DNA from: Sorangium aterium
Lineage (GTDB): Bacteria > Myxococcota_A > Polyangia > Polyangiales > Polyangiaceae
Length of the DNA: 64,000 nucleotides
Direction of reading: 5' to 3'
Assembly: GCF_028368935.1 (NCBI RefSeq)
Contig: NZ_JAQNDK010000002.1
Span: 868,001-932,000, forward strand
The notes under the pieces are model-generated. The model was not told the DNA's origin and did no database searches. It saw only the letters and a list, made by a program, of their open reading frames with translations. The translations under genes and the position numbers were made by a program. This document shows positions 1 to 9,525 of the stretch, in pieces; position 1 is the stretch's first letter, and every line of letters begins with the position of its first letter.

Positions 1-1523
1 GCTTTCTCGACCCATGCGTCCGGCGCGACGACGCAGCGCTCCTTGATGAAGTCGCGCAAGGGGTCGTTCTCGGCGCGGTAGGCTTCCGTCGCTCGCGTGA
101 TCGACGCCGGTGCGCCCAGCCCATGCTTTTGCCATTCGCTGCACCCGCGCACCGCCCAGGCCAGGATCGCCGGGCCACCGACCGCCGGATCAAGCAGCGC
201 TGCCTTGACCTGCGGGTCGCGCTTCTCCTTTGGGACGGTGTGCTCGAACGGGATCCGGAGGATGCGGCGCCAGATCGCGGCGTCATCGTCCCGCACGCGC
301 GGCGCATCGTTCGCGGCGAGCCACAGCTTGAAGGCTGGCTTGAACTCGAAGGACTCGCGGTAGAGGAACCGCGCTGTCACGGTGTCGCCGCCGGTCAGCT
401 GCTTGACCAGCCCTTCGGCGAGCCGCTTGCCCTCGTCGACCTCGATCGAGAGCACGAGGCGAGCCCCCGCGAGCCGCGCGATGTCGTTGCGCGGACCGCC
501 GGAGTCACGCCGGGCGATGAAGGTCTCGAAGTCTGCCTTCGCCGCATACTCGCCCATGGTGATCTTCAGCGCTTCGAGGAACGTCGACTTGCCGGAGGCC
601 GGCGGACCGTGGACGAAGAAGAGTACCTCATCGCTAACGTCGCCGGTCAGCGTGCAGCCTGCGGCGCGGCGGAGGAACCCGATCAGCTCCTCATCGTTGC
701 CCGTCACGTCAGCGAGGAAGCGATCCCAGATCGGCAGCTCCGCGCCTGGCTCGAACGCGACCGGAACGATTCGGCGCATCATGTCGCGGCGGTCGTGGTC
801 CCGCAGCTCTCCTGTGCGGAGGTCGAGCACGCCGTTGCGGCAGTTCAGAAGCCAGGGATCGGCGTCGAAGTCACCGGGTTCGGCGCGGACGATCGGCTCC
901 GTTTCCGCGAGGCGGAGCATCGCATCGATGCCGCGCGCCGACTGCGATCGCTTCGCCCAGTTGAACAGCGCGGTCGCTTCCTTGTGCTGAGCCTTCGCCT
1001 TCGCCACCTCGTCGTCGTCGTGCGCACGCTTCACCCGCTTCGCGGCATGGTTCATCGCGAACTCGGCATCGGTCAGCAGGCGACGCGTCGTCTCCTTTGC
1101 GAGCTCTGCCACCGTGGCCCGATCGCAGCACCATCGGGAGCCGGCCCATGTATGCCAACCACCGAGCGCTTCGACGTGGCGCAGATCAGGACCGTACAGG
1201 GCAACAAGGCGCTCCGCGTTCGCGAGGTCGCTGTCCGGCGCGGTGCCCTGCCTCAGCGGCACAACGACGAGCTGCAGCGACCCGTTGCCGTTCGCGGGAC
1301 CGCCTCCGGTGCATGGCTCCGCAGGCACCATCGAGGCGCCGCACGCATCCAACCAGAGCCCGTCGCCGCGCGAGATCGGCTCATCGTCGCCGGCCTCGTC
1401 GTCGTCTGCGTTCCCGTCACCATGGTCGCTCGGCTCGACATCGTTCGCCGCGCACGCCTCGTCGTCGTGGTGTCGCTCCGGTCCGGCCGTCGACGGCTGT
1501 GCCGAGGTCGGTTCAGCGTGCAT
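1..1523 (-). CDS. P4-type phage/plasmid primase-helicase, helicase part (C-terminus outside window)
   Basis: Superfamily 3 type replicative helicase of the phage/plasmid P4 group. The frame is open to the window edge, so the C-terminus is missing. ATG at 1523 overlaps the end of the ERCC4 gene by 11 bp, which supports this start and an operon. About 100 acidic, low-complexity residues are followed by a D5_N-like region (the N-G-V-L-D-L-R-T-G segment is typical) and a Walker A loop G-P-P-A-S-G-K-S-T coded near 585-610. A downstream L-S-I-E-V-D-E-G-K stretch fits Walker B. No TOPRIM or primase-polymerase domain precedes it, so this chain looks like the helicase only. It probably serves replication of an integrated prophage or mobile element. 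Confidence 0.8.
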   Translation of the reverse strand, partial: MHAEPTSAQPSTAGPERHHDDEACAANDVEPSDHGDGNADDDEAGDDEPISRGDGLWLDACGASMVPAEPCTGGGPANGNGSLQLVVVPLRQGTAPDSDLANAERLVALYGPDLRHVEALGGWHTWAGSRWCCDRATVAELAKETTRRLLTDAEFAMNHAAKRVKRAHDDDEVAKAKAQHKEATALFNWAKRSQSARGIDAMLRLAETEPIVRAEPGDFDADPWLLNCRNGVLDLRTGELRDHDRRDMMRRIVPVAFEPGAELPIWDRFLADVTGNDEELIGFLRRAAGCTLTGDVSDEVLFFVHGPPASGKSTFLEALKITMGEYAAKADFETFIARRDSGGPRNDIARLAGARLVLSIEVDEGKRLAEGLVKQLTGGDTVTARFLYRESFEFKPAFKLWLAANDAPRVRDDDAAIWRRILRIPFEHTVPKEKRDPQVKAALLDPAVGGPAILAWAVRGCSEWQKHGLGAPASITRATEAYRAENDPLRDFIKERCVVAPDAWVEK

Positions 1524-1968
1524 CCCGCACCTCCCCACGCTTCCGGTGAAATCGCGAGAGAATCAGCGCGGCGATCTTCTCGGCGGACTCGCGCGAGCCT
1601 GCCCACGTCGTACTGATACCGAAGTCCTGCTCGATGGCGAGCGCGCTTGCGATCACCGCCTGGGGCATCGTCCTGCTGCGGTAGCGATGCGCCCAGACAT
1701 CGGGGACGCCGGCCTCCACCAAGATCGTCTTGAGCTCATACGCTCGAAGCCGCTCACACTCACGGAGGAAACGCTCGCGTTCCCATGTGACGCTCTGCAC
1801 GAGGTCGTCCAGGCTCTTGCGCTCGATCGCGACGCTCGTCTCGAACCCGGCGAGCGAGTAGTCCCCGGCGGGCAGCGCTGCGTGCTCCATGTGGAGCCGT
1901 CCGCCGAAGGTCCAGGGGCGCTGCTCGCGCGTGTCGACGATGATGATCATGCTGCCCGCGTCCTTCAT
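1513..1968 (-). CDS. ERCC4-domain (XPF-type) nuclease, phage-type
   Basis: A single ERCC4 nuclease domain of 151 aa without helicase or helix-hairpin-helix parts, the size usual for phage and plasmid copies. Visible motifs in order: V-D-T-R-E-Q-R-P near residue 11, L-P-A-G-D-Y-S-L near residue 34, and the catalytic core I-E-R-K-S-L-D-D-L near residue 50. Such enzymes cut branched or forked DNA. It lies between an excisionase-type HTH gene and a P4-type helicase, overlapping both ends by a few bases, so a replication or recombination role in a mobile element is likely. I infer structure-specific endonuclease activity from the family only. Confidence 0.85.
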   Translation of the reverse strand: MKDAGSMIIIVDTREQRPWTFGGRLHMEHAALPAGDYSLAGFETSVAIERKSLDDLVQSVTWERERFLRECERLRAYELKTILVEAGVPDVWAHRYRSRTMPQAVIASALAIEQDFGISTTWAGSRESAEKIAALILSRFHRKRGEVRDAR

Positions 1969-2312
1969 CGCGATGACCTCCGCGGCTGAAGGGACGCGAA
2001 GAACGCAGCGTCCGCGTCGTCGCCGCTCTGCTTCTTCGGCTTCGGCGTGCGCGCCTGGGTCGCGATCCAGGCGTCAACGTCGGCCTTCCGCGCCATGAGT
2101 TTGCGGCCGACCCTGAACGAGGGGAACGCGCCTGCTGCCGCGGCACGCCGGAACGTCGTCGGCCCCGTCGGGGAGCTCCGGGCGTCGTAGTAGGCGGGGC
2201 TGGTGTCGCCGGCAGCGTTCTCGTTCGCCGCCTCTCGGATCGAGTCGGCCAGGTAGCGGGCGATCGTCGCGAATGCTTTCAGCAGGTCATCCTGGGTTAC
2301 AGACTTTCTCAA
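1965..2312 (-). CDS. Excisionase/MerR-type HTH DNA-binding protein
   Basis: Protein of about 115 aa. The C-terminal half has the helix-turn-helix layout of excisionase-type adaptors: F-R-R-A-A-A-A-G-A-F-P-S-F-R-V-G-R-K-L followed by D-V-D-A-W-I. I place the start at TTG 2312 because a clean GGAGG (complement of 2318-2322) sits five bases upstream; a longer frame to 2432 lacks such a site and reads like non-coding DNA. Its end overlaps the ERCC4 gene start by 4 bp. It is probably the first gene of this phage-like operon, controlling excision or replication. Confidence 0.65.
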   Translation of the reverse strand: MRKSVTQDDLLKAFATIARYLADSIREAANENAAGDTSPAYYDARSSPTGPTTFRRAAAAGAFPSFRVGRKLMARKADVDAWIATQARTPKPKKQSGDDADAAFFASLQPRRSSR

Positions 2313-2322
2313 TGGCACCTCC

Positions 2323-3331
2323 GAACAACAGCACGATCCACACGAGCGCCGCGGCACGGTCCTGCGGTGAGCCTGACGCAAGGCCCCGTCCCTCACAGCG
2401 AGTCCAAACACGGGCCTCCTGGCCGACGGCAACAGCCGACGCGGCCGTGCGGCCGAAGGCGAACGACGGGATGACGAGAAGGGCGCCCGAAGCGCACGCC
2501 GAGGTCGGAAGGCAGCCCGGGTGCTCTCGGCTACGGGGCCGTTAGCGCCTGACGCCGGTCAGGCCCCGGCGCTAGTCGAGGTCCCGCCCTCTCCGGCGCC
2601 CCGCCGTCGACCGGCGCCGGCCGCCAGATCGGGGGCGCCACCATGGCGATCTGTGCGGCGGGGCACGACGCCAGGCTCCTCCCGACCGAGATGCCGGCCA
2701 GGGGCGATGGCGAGGCCCTCTATAAGTCATGCTGCTCGAGATCGAGAGCGCTGTGATGCGTTGCGGGGCGGAGCCCTGGGGTCCGGTGCCGACGGGTCGA
2801 GGTTTCCCACGCCGTCCGGCGCCCTGCCGGTCGAGTCAGAGCCGGCCGCGCGGCAAGGGGGAGCGCCACGGGGACGAGCTGAGCGGCGGGGCGGAGCGCC
2901 CGACCGTGATGCCGGGCGGTGCCGACGGGGCCCACTCCTTGATCGTGGTGCTCGAGATCGAGGGTGCTGTGATCCGCTGTGGTGCGGAGGCCCTTCGCGG
3001 TTACACATAAGACAGAATCTCGACCGCGGCAGGGCTGGCGAGCACGCGGCCAACGCCGCCGACATCGCGCGGCTGATGCGGGGGGCGAGAGGGGGATGCA
3101 CGCGTCCGGTGACCTGCATGCTGTCGTCGAACCGCTTCGTCCCCTGGGGATCGGCGCTCCACGACGGGCACCCAGCCGGCGAGACCGACCCCGGGTCCGA
3201 GTCTGCGCGCTGTGCTGGCGCAGCCCAGCCCGGAGCCAGGCGAGCGGCCTGGGCTGGTCTCCCAGAGCCGGCCCGGATCTCCCGGCGGTCGTCCTTGACG
3301 GCGCGAGAATGCTTGCTATGAGGGGCGAATC
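2323..3331. other. Gene-poor stretch with a stem-loop and a diverged direct repeat
   Basis: About 1 kb with no frame that reads like a protein. It holds an inverted repeat at 2543-2574 (TAGCGCC...GGCGCTA enclosing CCTGAC-GCCG-GTCAGG). It also holds two diverged direct copies starting near 2732 and 2950 (GCTCGAGATCGAG followed by GCTGTGAT), and near 3160-3210 a segment resembling the decayed sigma-factor DNA found at 8.2 kb. It is probably decayed accessory DNA. Confidence 0.4.
2543..2574. repeat. Inverted repeat / stem-loop
   Basis: The outer arms TAGCGCC and GGCGCTA enclose an inner hairpin CCTGAC-GCCG-GTCAGG. It lies upstream of the phage-like operon. It could be a transcription terminator, a protein site or part of an attachment site; the sequence alone does not decide. 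Confidence 0.5.
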
Positions 3332-3568
3332 ATGCCCGAAATTCTCATCGCGAAGGCGACAGATTCGATCGATGGCGACGAATACGTGATGACCGGAATC
3401 GCACGCCTTCGAAGCGGTCAGGAGGTCGGGAGAGCCGAGCTTCGCGTACCGCTGATCGCCGTCGACGCTTCGGTGGTGGGGAAGGCCGAGGTCGAGCATT
3501 TGAAGTCTGCGCTCGAAGCCGCGGTACAGGCAATAGCCAGGGCCAAGGCTCGCGCAGGCGGCCACTGA
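3332..3568 (+). CDS. Small hypothetical protein, 78 aa
   Basis: I do not recognise this family. The protein starts M-P-E-I-L-I-A-K-A and ends in an alanine-rich helix (K-S-A-L-E-A-A-V-Q-A-I-A-R-A). A purine-rich GAGGGG lies about 6 bases before the ATG and codon use is normal for high-GC DNA. It stands alone between two gene-poor stretches. No membrane segment or signal peptide is visible. Confidence 0.5.
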   Translation: MPEILIAKATDSIDGDEYVMTGIARLRSGQEVGRAELRVPLIAVDASVVGKAEVEHLKSALEAAVQAIARAKARAGGH

Positions 3569-4093
3569 GCGGGAAGCCTGCAGAGGCTGACCGTATCGAG
3601 CACGCGCTTGCTGCCCTCGCTGGCACACCGCGCTCTCCGCGCCCGTCGTTGTTTTGGGACTCGTATACGACGACTTGGGCCTGTTAGAACTCCACGCACG
3701 CCTACAACGGAACGATTTAGGGACCGCTCGCCCGGTGTACGGACGGCAGGGCGCCCCCCTGCCGGGGGCTGAGGCTCGGATGGCCTCGCAGAGTCGGAGC
3801 TTCACGGCGGGCACCAGGCCGGCGGAGTGGATCCCGGGTCCGAGTCTGCGATGCCCGATCCCCCGCCAGCGAGGCCGAGCGAGCAGGCGCTACTGCGCAC
3901 GGGAGCAGGCGGCGGGTGGGGGCCCTGCCCTGCTGGCCGTCTCCCGTACAGTGCCGGCGGCCCACTACGAGCGCATGCCCCGTTTTGACACGGTGACACG
4001 GGGCGGTATCTCCGCTGGCGCGCACAGAGCGAGATGGCAATGGGGGGTAGCTGAGACGTTGATGAGAACGACAGAGTTGAACAACGAGCAACA
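3569..4093. other. Gene-poor stretch with a decayed sigma-factor-like segment
   Basis: No convincing gene. Bases around 3810-3850, read on the minus strand, resemble the region-2/region-4 linker of the broken ECF sigma gene at 8.2 kb (CTCGGACCCGGG then CGCCGGCCTGGTGCC). Short open frames here are in GC-rich DNA without family features. Confidence 0.35.
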
Positions 4094-5749
4094 CTACGAT
4101 CGACCGAGCTTAGACTGAGCCGACTTAATACTTCCGATCATGGCCTGGAGACGATCGAGCAGCTCGTCGTACGTTATCAATTTCACAGCGCGTCCAGCGT
4201 TTAGATGCAACAGTCGCCGCCGCGTCTGACTATCCATACCTGCATTGCGACCAATCACAACCATCCCCTGTACCGGAAACGAGCTATCAAACGACGCAGG
4301 AACATCACTCGGATTCTCTCGCCACCACCGGATCCAGTCCTCAACCTGCTGAATAGCATGCGTAACGTGGTCCCTGGGTCTTCCGTACATAGTAAACAGA
4401 GGCAAGCTCGCTCGCTCAAGCTCGATCAGCAGAACGCGTTTTTCATCGAGCTCGTACTGGATTGCCAAATCAATGCGATACTTCTTTCCGAGCCACACCT
4501 CGGAGAGCACGCGAGCGCCAAATGGCTCAATGACAGTCGGAAAATTGAGAATAAACTCATGAAGCTGGCGTTCCTTTACCCGAGGATTCTGGACCAGGCG
4601 AGATAGTCCCAGGTACAAAGACCACAAGGTCGTATCTGTACTCTTTTCAGAGCTTGTCTCGAGCCGACGATCAATTAAATAGTCCTTTAGCTCCGGGTCT
4701 GGCAAATGCTCGGCCGCCGCTCTAATGACGCCTACGTCCGGCAGGAGCTCTGAATAGCCAGTTCTCTTCGGTCGCCCGATACTTCGCGGAAATTTACCTA
4801 GTGCAACTACCGGCACGGTACTGTGTCCCAGTGCTCGGTATGCAAGATAGGTGCAGTAGTCATCGCTCACGACAAACCGGCTGCCACCCCAATAAACAAG
4901 CAATTCCGGGCGCTTCCCCGAAAGTATCATCTTCTTCGCATCTTCCACTACATCCAGCGGATAACTTAAGCAGAAGTCGTAGTCGTGCGGCCTAATGAGA
5001 TCGAGGCGAATGCTTAGCGTCGAGCATCGAACCTGCCTCCGTAGTACCGCCCTAAGGAATTGATCATAGGTCTTATCCACGGGAGGCTCAGTTCCCGCAC
5101 GGCTTCGGAAATCTAGATCAGATTCGACGGCTTCCTTAAGCGGGATAAGCTGCATCTCACGCCCCCCTCGGTTCTCATTTAACCGACTGAGAGCGCACAC
5201 CACCATCTGAAGCACATCCGACCCCGCGCAACCAGCTCGGCCCTCTGTTGTCCAGCCGGCTTCAGAGAGAATCCAAAAGGTCGGCTCTTGATTGTTTTTG
5301 CTAGCGAGTACCTCGATACGAAAAACGAGCCCACGAGGAAACGAATCGTTAATGCCGGTGGCCGAATAGATGTAACCGCCAGCAGCAAGACTCTCGCGCT
5401 GAATAAGAATCCCCAACGCTTCGTCTTCAGGTATACTCGATACAACTTCGAGGAAGAGCGGCGTCGGAAGTGGATGATTCTCGATCTCCTCCATCAGCCG
5501 ATCAATGTCGACTGTGCACACAAGGTCAGCGCGTGACACAACATGGATTGATCTTGTGTTAAGAATATCTAAGAAAGCGGTTCCTAAGCCCGCATTCTTT
5601 CGATGAACGCCGAAGATGAAATTTCTAATTTGTGCCACATCAGGGAAGACTCCATCTTGCCCCGTAATGTCCCTGTATAGACTCAACCTGGCTCTTCCGA
5701 TGACGTGGTTGGTGAGATTGCGCTGCAGGACATCGGGTATCTGTTTCAT
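4094..5749 (-). CDS. Shedu-type (DUF4263) nuclease fused to a ParB-like domain
   Basis: A 551-aa probable anti-phage protein. The C-terminal part (about 395-540) matches the Shedu/DUF4263 nuclease pattern: R-Q-L-H-E-F-I-L-N-F-P, then a PD-(D/E)XK-like core with R-I-D-L and L-L-I-E-L-E-R, then A-I-Q-Q-V-E-D-W. The core reads E-x-E rather than the usual E-x-K. A middle segment (about 280-325), S-D-D-Y-C-T-Y-L-A-Y-R-A-L-G then V-P-V-V-A-L-G, looks like a ParB/sulfiredoxin-type N domain. The first 270 residues are unrecognised. The gene is markedly lower in GC than its surroundings and divergent from an OLD-family gene, so transfer as a defence island is likely. Shedu assignment is firm; the ParB-like call is tentative. 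Confidence 0.75.
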   Translation of the reverse strand: MKQIPDVLQRNLTNHVIGRARLSLYRDITGQDGVFPDVAQIRNFIFGVHRKNAGLGTAFLDILNTRSIHVVSRADLVCTVDIDRLMEEIENHPLPTPLFLEVVSSIPEDEALGILIQRESLAAGGYIYSATGINDSFPRGLVFRIEVLASKNNQEPTFWILSEAGWTTEGRAGCAGSDVLQMVVCALSRLNENRGGREMQLIPLKEAVESDLDFRSRAGTEPPVDKTYDQFLRAVLRRQVRCSTLSIRLDLIRPHDYDFCLSYPLDVVEDAKKMILSGKRPELLVYWGGSRFVVSDDYCTYLAYRALGHSTVPVVALGKFPRSIGRPKRTGYSELLPDVGVIRAAAEHLPDPELKDYLIDRRLETSSEKSTDTTLWSLYLGLSRLVQNPRVKERQLHEFILNFPTVIEPFGARVLSEVWLGKKYRIDLAIQYELDEKRVLLIELERASLPLFTMYGRPRDHVTHAIQQVEDWIRWWRENPSDVPASFDSSFPVQGMVVIGRNAGMDSQTRRRLLHLNAGRAVKLITYDELLDRLQAMIGSIKSAQSKLGRS

Positions 5750-6385: not shown

Positions 6386-7984
6386 ATGCGATCGACCTCA
6401 GTTCCCCCTCGGAGCCAACACAACGTGCATGAGACAATATTCGTGAACGCCCACAAGGGCCTTCAGTCGAGGAGATTCAGTGGGCTAGGACACATCAACG
6501 TGATATGCGGTCGCAACAACAGCGGAAAGTCCACCGTGCTCGAAGCAATATCAAACTCCGGAGCCGGAATAGCAGCAACACCTGAATCAATGATTGATGC
6601 GGCACGCGGTCTAGCACGCAGGGAACAAAGACATGGTGGGATCGAAGCACACTTATGGAATGCGATTGAACCCATTGTTTTAGACGCAATGAAACATGTG
6701 GACACAACGAAGACGAACATTTTCTCCGAAAATGAAATCCAGGACGTCGTCAAAAGCATCATCGAAGCATCAAACAAACGCGTCGAAGAGCTAAGCGAAT
6801 CCAGTCAAATAGACGGCCAAAAGAAATTTGCTCTATACATCGACATGCCATATTTGCATAATAAGCTATTTAATATTCTCACTCAAGTATACACGAGCAG
6901 CTTCAGCGCCCTGCTAATACCGGCACGACGATACATAGAATCCCAAAGTACACTCGATGAGCCTGAGACGTTAAACCCGAACGGAAAAGGGCTGATCCAA
7001 CTTCTGTTCGTCTGCAGAAATAAAAGAAAATCATCGCCCGAGCGTCATTTTTACGACACGGTGCGACAATATTTTCGTGAAATATCAAATGGTTTCGACT
7101 TCGATTTGTCCTTGACCGGCGACAGCTCGATCAACATCGACTTCTATTCCAAGGAAGGTGCACACCCAGCAGACAACTGTGGACTTGGATTGCATGAGTT
7201 ACTCGTCATTGTATCGTTTGCATTGTGGGAAAGCAAATCTGCGATATGTATCGAAGAGCCCGAGAATCACATGCACCCAGAGATGCAGAGGCGACTGCTA
7301 TCGTTTTTTCGACATGTAACAAAAAAGCAGTTCTTTATCAGTACCCATTCTAACATATTCGTGAATAGCGCAGCCGTAGATAAGGTTTTCTTTACTTCGT
7401 ACAAGAACGCGGCCGTTTACGTCGATGACGTTACGTCCAGAGCCACAGCGCTACATGATCTTGGGTATTCAGTCACTGATAATCTCGTGTCTGATCTGGT
7501 GATACTCGTCGAGGGTCCGACCGATGCCCCAGTTGTAGAAGAGTTCTTAGATAAGCTTGGTCTCGACGAACGTTTCACGATTAAGATTTGGCCGCTTGGC
7601 GGCGACATCATGGATCAGCTCGATCTATCCGTTTTTGGCGAGCGATACAAAGTCATTGCGCTGGTGGACCTAGACCCCGGCAGCAACGGTGTGCGCACGA
7701 GGTTCGCGAGTGCGTGCCAGCGTCTTGGCATAGAGGTATTTCGCCTGCAGCGCTACGCCATCGAAAACTACTTCAGTCTAGATTCCCTGCGCTCAGTGTT
7801 CAGTAGTCAGATTCCACAGACCATCAACGAGATAAGGCCAGATACGCCGCTCAAAGATCAAATAGGAATGAGCGTCAAAAAGAACAATCGCAAGATCGCC
7901 CGCGCCATGAGGTTCGACGACGTATCAGGCACGGACCTTGGAACGTTCTTCCGCCGCGTCGAACAAATCGTGACGAGCCAGTAA
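6386..7984 (+). CDS. OLD-family ATP-dependent endonuclease (AAA ATPase + TOPRIM)
   Basis: A 532-aa protein of the OLD (overcoming lysogenization defect) class, whose members act in phage defence, alone or as GajA-like subunits. Walker A G-R-N-N-S-G-K-S-T lies at residues 42-50 and an ABC-like signature (C-G-L-G-L-H-E-L-L) near 270. Walker B I-C-I-E-E-P-E-N-H-M-H-P lies near 287 and S-T-H-S follows. The TOPRIM part carries L-V-E-G-P-T-D-A-P near 372 and L-V-D-L-D near 427, which give the metal-binding Glu and Asp pair. GC content and A-rich codons differ strongly from the neighbours. No UvrD-like GajB partner is adjacent, so a stand-alone OLD is most likely. An alternative GTG start lies about 13 codons downstream. 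Confidence 0.85.
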   Translation: MRSTSVPPRSQHNVHETIFVNAHKGLQSRRFSGLGHINVICGRNNSGKSTVLEAISNSGAGIAATPESMIDAARGLARREQRHGGIEAHLWNAIEPIVLDAMKHVDTTKTNIFSENEIQDVVKSIIEASNKRVEELSESSQIDGQKKFALYIDMPYLHNKLFNILTQVYTSSFSALLIPARRYIESQSTLDEPETLNPNGKGLIQLLFVCRNKRKSSPERHFYDTVRQYFREISNGFDFDLSLTGDSSINIDFYSKEGAHPADNCGLGLHELLVIVSFALWESKSAICIEEPENHMHPEMQRRLLSFFRHVTKKQFFISTHSNIFVNSAAVDKVFFTSYKNAAVYVDDVTSRATALHDLGYSVTDNLVSDLVILVEGPTDAPVVEEFLDKLGLDERFTIKIWPLGGDIMDQLDLSVFGERYKVIALVDLDPGSNGVRTRFASACQRLGIEVFRLQRYAIENYFSLDSLRSVFSSQIPQTINEIRPDTPLKDQIGMSVKKNNRKIARAMRFDDVSGTDLGTFFRRVEQIVTSQ

Positions 7985-8320: not shown

Positions 8321-8375
8321 CTAGTGGATGATAGCAACGTCCAGCGCGGGCGCGGTGGCGTTCAGGATGGGCTCA

Positions 8376-8764
8376 GGAGCGGGCACGCCGGGCGCTAGCG
8401 AGATCGACGATCGGCGCTACCCGTGGCGTTGCCTGCGGGGCGCTGAGGAGCTCCGAGAGGGTGCGTGCAGCGATCTGCGCGGTCGCGAGGTCGCCCGCCG
8501 CATGGGCAGCGGCGATGGTCTGCGTCAGGGTCGCGACGAGCACCTGGCGCGGGCTGCTCGACGGAGGCGTGATCAGGGCTGCTTCGGGTCGGGCAGAGGT
8601 CGCCAGCGCCGCCTGCTCCACGGCCGCCGAGGGCGCCGCCGGAAGCGTCACGGAATCGTCCGGCCGACCAGAGATCGCGGGGTTAGCGCCCACGATCGCC
8701 AAGTCGGCGCCAGCCTCGACCTCCTTAAAACCCGCGGAAACCGGCCCGATCGTGTCCTTCTGCT
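8376..8764 (-). CDS. Small alanine-rich helical hypothetical protein (start uncertain)
   Basis: The minus-strand frame ends at 8373-8375 and reads well for its last 60-100 residues: an amphipathic alanine-rich helix (I-A-A-A-H-A-A-G-D-L-A-T-A-Q-I-A-A-R), L-S-E-L-L, and a basic tail V-D-L-A-S-A-R-R-A-R-S. I do not recognise the function. The start is unclear because no good ribosome site is visible and the upstream part runs opposite the truncated DUF4351-type gene. It lies just upstream of the dead sigma factor on the same strand, so the two may once have been one operon. Confidence 0.4.
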
Positions 8765-8773
8765 CCCCCAGAC

Positions 8774-9395
8774 GAGGGCCCGGCACCGCTGCCCGACGTG
8801 GCTCCTGGTCGTGACGATCGATGCAGGCATCGCGCGGTGGTGCGCGCGGCCGATCGACGCGGGCCACCCCGGCTTGACGCTGACGCCGCTGGTGCTCGGG
8901 CCCGCGGGCGTCCCGGTCGTCACCGATGCCGGGCAGGCGAGGGCGGCGCCCGAGGTGGTCGTGCTCTCGGCCATGGCGCACGGGCGGGGCGAGGCGGGGG
9001 AGGCGATCGGCGTGGCGTTCCTGGGGGCGGCCGCCGGGCTCGATGAGGAGCGCCGCGCCGTCTACGGGGACCTGGTGCTATCCTCGCTGAACGCAGCGGC
9101 GAGGCGGACATTGGAGGCGATAATGAAGAGCGGATACGAGTTTCAGAGCGAATTCGCGCGCAGCTACGTGGCCAAGGGCGTGGAGAAGGGGCTGGAGCAG
9201 GGGCGGCAGCAGGGGCTCCTCGAAGGGAAGGCGCAGGCCGTGCTGGCCGTCCTCGAGGCCCGCGGGCTGGAGGTCCCTGCCGAGGTCCGGGAGCGCGTCC
9301 TCGCGAGCACGGATACCGCCGAGCTGGACCGCTGGATCCGCCGCGCTGCATCCGTCGGCGACGCCAGGGAGCTGCTCGCGACGACCGGCTCCTGA
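8774..9395 (+). pseudogene. 5'-truncated DUF4351/Rpn-type nuclease-family gene
   Basis: The C-terminal two thirds of a protein family common in Sorangium-like genomes: C-P-T-W-L-L-V-V-T-I-D-A-G, A-R-W-C-A-R-P-I-D, L-T-P-L-V-L-G-P-A-G-V-P-V-V-T-D, then V-L-S-A-M-A-H-G. The tail has the usual Q-S-E-F-A-R-S-Y-V-A-K-G-V-E-K-G-L-E-Q-G helix and a short final domain. The N-terminal nuclease half with its PD-(D/E)XK residues is absent; upstream codons read as unrelated DNA with an opposing small gene. I therefore call it truncated. The reading frame that remains is intact. Confidence 0.6.
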
Positions 9396-9525
9396 GCGCG
9401 TACAGCGTCGGGAAGCCCTCGAGCGGCAGGAGCTTCTGCGAGAGGAAGAAGACGCCCCTCTGGTGGACGTTCGAGAGCGCGTCGAACTGCGTCTCGCAGC
9501 CAGCCTGCGGGCGATCGACTCTCCT

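What the first reader, a model, noticed from the sequence alone, without database searches (positions are those of the whole stretch)
4094..5749. Shedu nuclease fused to a ParB-like domain, with an E-x-E core
DUF4263 proteins carry varied N-terminal sensors. Here the middle region reads like a ParB/sulfiredoxin N domain, and the nuclease core has E-L-E in place of E-x-K. A ParB-like unit could bring CTP binding or DNA nicking to Shedu.
Basis: partly seen in the sequence, partly recalled or inferred. Interest (0 to 1): 0.6.

Follow-up and report, generated by a model that had tools for sequence, protein, structure and literature searches.

The report
Shedu anti-phage nuclease with ParB-fold middle
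A soil-bacterium gene encodes a rare version of the known single-protein anti-phage nuclease Shedu, whose regulatory half contains a worn-down copy of the ParB/sulfiredoxin fold that has lost its usual nucleotide-gripping motif; it is a real and mildly unusual variant, not a new kind of system.

Summary
The ORF at 4094-5749 (-), 551 aa, is intact. Its C-terminus is a Shedu nuclease domain (Pfam SduA_C E 5e-15). PADLOC already holds a full-length SduA model for it (PDLC00387, E 8.5e-87). Residues 239-342 are predicted to have the ParB/sulfiredoxin fold (AlphaFold2 plus Foldseek/VIA; Z 9.8 to sulfiredoxin, 9.4 to ParB and Noc). A 32%-identical full-length relative in Peristeroidobacter gives the same fold. 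Sequence alone shows no ParB similarity above shuffles, so this rests on predicted structure.

E-L-E is not a private oddity: E-x-E is present in all 30 rows collected with a motif that does not include it, from about ten phyla. BamHI is a precedent for active E-x-E, so the nuclease is probably active. CTP binding is unlikely: the ParB/Srx P motif GxxR, needed for nucleotide binding, reads DDYC here and DDYA in the relative.

Best reading: a horizontally acquired Shedu (52% GC against about 70% flanks) whose degenerate ParB/Srx module is a non-catalytic sensor or scaffold restraining a BamHI-like nuclease. The subtype is rare: 1 of 183 genomes in its order. No published ParB-Shedu report was found, but the key Shedu survey could not be read.

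The parts
4094..5749 (-). Shedu (SduA-type) gene, 551 aa, with ParB/Srx-fold middle and SduA_C nuclease
   Evidence: Intact ORF; PADLOC PDLC00387 E 8.5e-87 over residues 10-541; Pfam SduA_C E 5.4e-15
5036..5749 (-). N-terminal region, residues 1-238: helical start (1-64) then low-confidence alpha/beta stretch; fold not identified
   Evidence: AlphaFold2 pLDDT about 60-85 for 1-60, mostly under 50 for 66-224; no Pfam hit
4724..5035 (-). ParB/sulfiredoxin-fold domain, residues 239-342
   Evidence: Model pLDDT about 70-89 over most of it; VIA Z 9.8 to sulfiredoxin 6ky4 (80 aa), 9.4 to MxParB 7bnr and Noc 7ol9; same fold in relative L057
4841..4867 (-). Position of the ParB P motif (Box II, GxxR), residues 295-303; reads SDDYCTYLA, no Gly and no Arg
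   Evidence: N-terminus of the helix after strand E292-294; SDDYALYLA in relative L057; motif role from PMC12704722
4124..4639 (-). Shedu PD-(D/E)XK-type nuclease domain, residues 371-542
   Evidence: VIA Z 17.5 to BcSduA 8ti9, 16.9 to EcSduA 8ps4; pLDDT mostly 88-98 from residue 381
4571..4573 (-). E393, conserved helix-1 glutamate
   Evidence: Invariant in A9, over 90% in A6
4469..4471 (-). D427, catalytic-position aspartate
   Evidence: Invariant in A9; aligned with D of EcSduA and BcSduA
4415..4423 (-). E443-L444-E445, the E-x-E in place of E-x-K
   Evidence: E-x-E in all 30 E-branch rows; nine E-x-K and one D-x-K among ten other Shedu proteins
4325..4360 (-). HAIQQVEDWIRW helix motif, residues 464-475, marker of the E-x-E branch
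6386..7984 (+). Divergent neighbour: OLD-like AAA ATPase with TOPRIM, 532 aa; low-GC neighbour, not shown to be a partner
   Evidence: Pfam AAA_21 E 2.5e-19, AAA_15 E 2.2e-16, OLD-like_TOPRIM E 0.0012 (below Pfam cut-off); PADLOC hits to several families, NsnB best at 4e-23

Best explanation
This is a single-gene Shedu-type anti-phage nuclease of a rare subtype. Shown by sequence: the C-terminal third is the Shedu nuclease core, with a fully acidic active site (E393, D427, E443, E445), and E-x-E replaces E-x-K throughout its branch. Shown by structure prediction: the middle domain has the ParB/sulfiredoxin fold, and it lacks the P-motif arginine. Inferred: the enzyme cuts DNA with metal ions in the manner of BamHI, where the lysine is also a glutamate. 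Inferred: the N-terminal two thirds, including the ParB/Srx module, act as a non-hydrolysing sensor or scaffold that keeps the nuclease off and senses phage DNA or a phage-induced state, as N-terminal domains do in other Shedu proteins. The module probably does not work as a CTP switch. My component estimates: nuclease active about 0.8; ParB/Srx fold correct about 0.9; regulatory role of that domain about 0.7; canonical NTP binding about 0.1.
For: Full-length PADLOC SduA match and SduA_C match. Nuclease core Z 17 to both solved Shedu proteins. ParB/Srx fold in P0001 and independently in a 32%-identical relative. E393, D427, E443 and E445 invariant or nearly so in 24-30 relatives. K replaced by E in BamHI (PMC4081073), and E113K is part of a cleavage-deficient BamHI mutant (PMC8845596). 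GxxR arginine needed for NTP binding in this fold (PMC12704722), absent in both homologues. [quoted passage not shown] Base composition: 50-54% GC against about 70% flanks; absent from the other 182 genomes searched in the order.
Against: No experiment on this subtype. The N-terminal 66-224 is poorly predicted, so the arrangement of sensor and nuclease is unknown. The ParB/Srx call rests on shallow alignments (two sequences over that domain). In the E-x-K protein tested the lysine is essential (VcSduA K557A), so the E-x-E branch could have altered or lost activity, although its strict conservation argues against loss.
Confidence: 0.68

Rival explanations
1. The ParB/Srx domain is a working NTP switch: it binds CTP, ATP or GTP through a changed motif (for example the conserved SDDY acids holding Mg2+) and gates the nuclease, as GTP hydrolysis gates SspE or NTP gates GmrSD-type DUF262 proteins.
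For: The fold is widely used as an NTP module and is found fused to HNH nucleases (PMC12704722; PMC4619093). The SDDY motif is conserved between two distant homologues.
Against: No GxxR, DGQQR, DGQHR or GCHR arginine at the P-motif position in either homologue; R-to-A abolishes binding in tested members.
Confidence: 0.12
2. The ParB/Srx domain is itself a DNA nickase, as proposed for RK2 ParB and Osa, giving a two-nuclease protein.
For: Nuclease activity reported for some ParB/Srx proteins, tied to the ATPase site in Osa (as summarised in PMC4619093).
Against: That activity maps to the nucleotide site, which is degenerate here.
Confidence: 0.04
3. The E-x-E branch is catalytically dead and the protein works by binding or competing.
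For: Loss of the PD-(D/E)XK lysine in an E-x-K Shedu abolishes protection.
Against: E-x-E is strictly conserved in about ten phyla together with E393, D427 and QQxxDWxxW; BamHI precedent.
Confidence: 0.1
4. The middle segment only resembles ParB/Srx as a common alpha/beta arrangement and is a different, unrelated domain.
For: No sequence similarity to ParB above shuffles; shallow alignment.
Against: About half of the 50 best VIA rows are ParB/Srx-family entries covering the domain at Z 7-10, and two homologues give it independently.
Confidence: 0.08

Closest known systems
Shedu SduA of E. coli (EcSduA, 8ps4/8ps5) and B. cereus (BcSduA, 8ti8/8ti9)
   Same: C-terminal nuclease fold (Z 17), position of D and first E, single protein with an N-terminal regulatory part
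   Different: They have E-V-K and E-I-K where this has E-L-E; the ParB/Srx-fold hits for this protein are not to these chains
PADLOC SduA family PDLC00387
   Same: Full-length match over residues 10-541, E 8.5e-87: this protein and L057 belong to this already catalogued subtype
   Different: Described there only as 'DUF4263 domain'; no ParB/Srx annotation or E-x-E note
VcSduA (GHKL-ATPase Shedu, class I-D)
   Same: Shedu nuclease joined to a fold known for nucleotide binding
   Different: VcSduA keeps its ATPase motifs and its E-x-K lysine and needs both; here the nucleotide motif is missing and K is E
GmrSD / SspE type DUF262 nucleases
   Same: ParB/Srx-fold module controlling an anti-phage nuclease
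   Different: Nuclease is HNH, not PD-(D/E)XK; DUF262 keeps DGQQR
BamHI
   Same: PD-(D/E)XK active site with Glu in place of Lys
   Different: Sequence-specific type II enzyme, unrelated outside the core fold

Membership tests
Shedu (SduA) | SduA_C/DUF4263 nuclease domain at the C-terminus | tested here: met
   Pfam 56.3 bits against cut-off 27; PADLOC E 8.5e-87; Z 17 to EcSduA and BcSduA
Shedu (SduA) | PD-(D/E)XK catalytic residues D...ExK | tested here: inconclusive
   D427 and E443 present; the lysine is E445, as in its whole branch of 30. PADLOC counts this branch as SduA; activity not tested
Shedu (SduA) | Variable N-terminal regulatory domain | tested here: met
   About 370 residues before the nuclease, unlike those of other E-branch members (standalone, TPR, others); that it regulates is not shown
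Shedu (SduA) | Protects against phage and cleaves DNA near ends | not testable with these tools
   Needs experiment
ParB/sulfiredoxin fold | ParB/Srx topology | tested here: met
   Predicted structures of two homologues
ParB/sulfiredoxin fold | P motif GxxR for NTP binding | tested here: not met
   SDDYCTYLA and SDDYALYLA at the helix start
ParB/sulfiredoxin fold | Pfam ParB_N (PF02195) match | tested here: not met
   No hit at E<=10; genome search with PF02195 rings only the chromosomal ParB
ParB CTPase (chromosome segregation type) | HTH and dimerisation domain after the CTPase fold | tested here: not met
   Followed directly by the Shedu nuclease

The most novel reading that the evidence does not exclude
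A Shedu subtype in which a ParB/Srx fold that has lost its nucleotide motif was turned into a sensor of something else (DNA ends, a phage protein or another ligand held by the SDDY acids), controlling a BamHI-like E-x-E nuclease branch that has not been characterised.
Probability: 0.35. Interest if true: 0.55.

Novelty: new variant of a known kind. Interest (0 to 1): 0.4.

Why it matters
It adds a ParB/Srx-fold regulatory part to the range of Shedu N-terminal domains, and points to a large, apparently untested branch of Shedu nucleases with an all-acid E-x-E site. Testing one member would show whether that branch cuts DNA without the lysine found essential in an E-x-K member, and whether a ParB fold without its arginine can still act as a switch.

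Tried and rejected
Single-protein and small-alignment scans of genome contigs and viral contigs, phage tblastn (15) and plasmid tblastn of the N-terminal part (16) found no full-length relative. A DNA pattern for HAxQQ[ILVM]xDWxxW in genome contigs gave 33 loci, most of them Shedu and one full-length relative (L057). L063 (amidase-like) and probably L059 are chance or unclear hits and were left out. First translations of minus-strand loci L005, L006 and L008 were made on the wrong strand and discarded. hhalign and pairwise alignment to the genome's own ParB gave nothing above chance (one search used a wrong frame and is void). Operon partnership with the OLD-like gene was considered and not adopted: it is divergent, and no such gene was seen in the 8-kb L057 locus (inspection only). 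The E-branch tree split has only 74/96 support and the E sample was chosen by a motif, so monophyly is suggested, not shown. Gu et al. 2025 and Loeff et al. 2025 could not be read, so absence of a published ParB-Shedu is not established. No paper in the held library joins Shedu with ParB as a fusion.

Full report
What is there. The ORF at 4094-5749 (-) is intact, 551 aa. Pfam finds only SduA_C at residues 392-531 (E 5.4e-15). PADLOC matches the whole protein to one of its SduA models, PDLC00387, E 8.5e-87 over residues 10-541. It is therefore a Shedu protein of an already catalogued subtype, not an unknown.

The middle domain. No sequence method sees ParB there: Pfam finds nothing at E<=10 for the full protein or for the fragment from either homologue; a PDB profile search with the two-sequence fragment gives only irrelevant hits; and alignment to the genome's own ParB is no better than shuffles. 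Structure prediction does see it. In the AlphaFold2 model (30-row alignment) residues 239-342 match sulfiredoxin 6ky4 (Z 9.8, 80 residues), M. xanthus ParB 7bnr (Z 9.4) and Noc 7ol9 (Z 9.4, rmsd 2.1), and ParB/Srx-family entries fill about half of the 50 best rows. The single full-length relative found, L057 in Peristeroidobacter agariperforans (32.5% identity over residues 4-539), was predicted separately and also matches sulfiredoxin (6ky4 E 1.2e-4), Noc and ParB.

The nucleotide motif. In ParB-fold proteins the P motif (Box II, GxxR) sits at the start of the helix that follows the fourth strand. Its arginine is required: R-to-A variants lost NTP binding in the survey of Kaljevic et al. (PMC12704722). 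At that place the two Shedu homologues read SDDYCTYLA and SDDYALYLA, with no glycine and no arginine. Canonical CTP, ATP or GTP binding is therefore unlikely, and nicking by this site, which in Osa shares the ATPase site (PMC4619093), even less so. The placing of the motif comes from the model's secondary structure and near-gapless aligned ranges, not from coordinates that I could superpose. The conserved SDDY could serve another ligand; that is speculation.

The nuclease. The core matches BcSduA 8ti9 (Z 17.5) and EcSduA 8ps4 (Z 16.9). A profile alignment puts D427 and E443-L-E445 on D...E-V-K of EcSduA and D...E-I-K of BcSduA. To see whether E-x-E is a decay product, I collected relatives with a DNA pattern for a different motif (HAxQQ[ILVM]xDWxxW) plus viral contigs. 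All 30 usable rows, from about ten phyla, carry E-x-E together with QQxxDWxxW, while ten other Shedu domains from the phylum of this genome carry nine E-x-K and one D-x-K. Plasmid relatives from Planococcus, Leptospira, Rhodococcus and Acinetobacter are also E-x-E. A tree puts the two types on opposite sides of one branch with 74/96 support; since the E-branch sample was picked by a motif, this suggests one branch but does not prove it. In BamHI the lysine is also a glutamate (PMC4081073), so E-x-E is compatible with cutting. The other side: in the E-x-K protein VcSduA the lysine is essential (K557A, PMC12137116).

Distribution and setting. PDLC00387 rings full-length only in this genome among 183 searched genomes of its order and 377 of its phylum, only in L057's genome among 274 of that class, and as a fragment at a contig end in Candidatus Chloroploca (L037). 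None of the five same-genus genomes has it. The gene and its divergent OLD-like neighbour (6386-7984) lie at roughly 45-54% GC inside about 70% GC sequence, and the right flank holds multicopy elements of the genus. This fits horizontal acquisition of defence genes; I did not map the insertion ends. In the 8-kb L057 locus I saw no OLD-like gene on reading its ORFs, so the pair is not taken as one system.

How it most likely works. [quoted passage not shown] By that analogy the first 370 residues here should hold or release the nuclease on a phage cue, with the ParB/Srx module as a non-catalytic part of the sensor. What it senses is not known. Steps shown: domain make-up, conserved active-site acids, loss of the P motif. 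Steps inferred: activity, regulation, phage protection.

Known or new. Known: the Shedu family, and a PADLOC model for this subtype. Not found in what I could read: any ParB/Srx-Shedu fusion or a discussion of the E-x-E branch. From memory, Gu et al. 2025 lists many N-terminal domain types; that paper was not available, so novelty of the domain call remains open. I file it as a new variant of a known kind.

Noticed in passing
6386-7984 (+): OLD-like AAA ATPase with TOPRIM, low GC like the Shedu gene and divergent from it; hits several PADLOC ATPase families (NsnB, AriA, GajA) without a clear winner.
   Followed up: partly
about 8764-9428: Element of about 650 bp with many copies at about 80-90% identity across six genomes of the genus; the ORF at 8328-9395 (+) ends in a sequence that reads like Rpn-type recombination-promoting proteins (by eye).
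   Followed up: partly
1513-1968 (-) and 1965-2432 (-): Small ERCC4-domain nuclease (Pfam E 6.7e-13) next to a gene with a weak HTH_17 match; looks like a mobile-element or repair pair.
   Followed up: no
2727-3850: Diverged direct repeats (57 nt at 81%, 50 nt at 82%) in the left flank.
   Followed up: no
L004, L007, L013, L015, L018: Myxococcota Shedu proteins whose N-terminus reads like a response-regulator receiver domain (by eye), E-L-K type.
   Followed up: no
L034:2338-4119: Chloroflexi E-x-E Shedu with N-terminal repeats that look like TPR (Pfam TPR_2 E 6e-11 in one member of A9).
   Followed up: no
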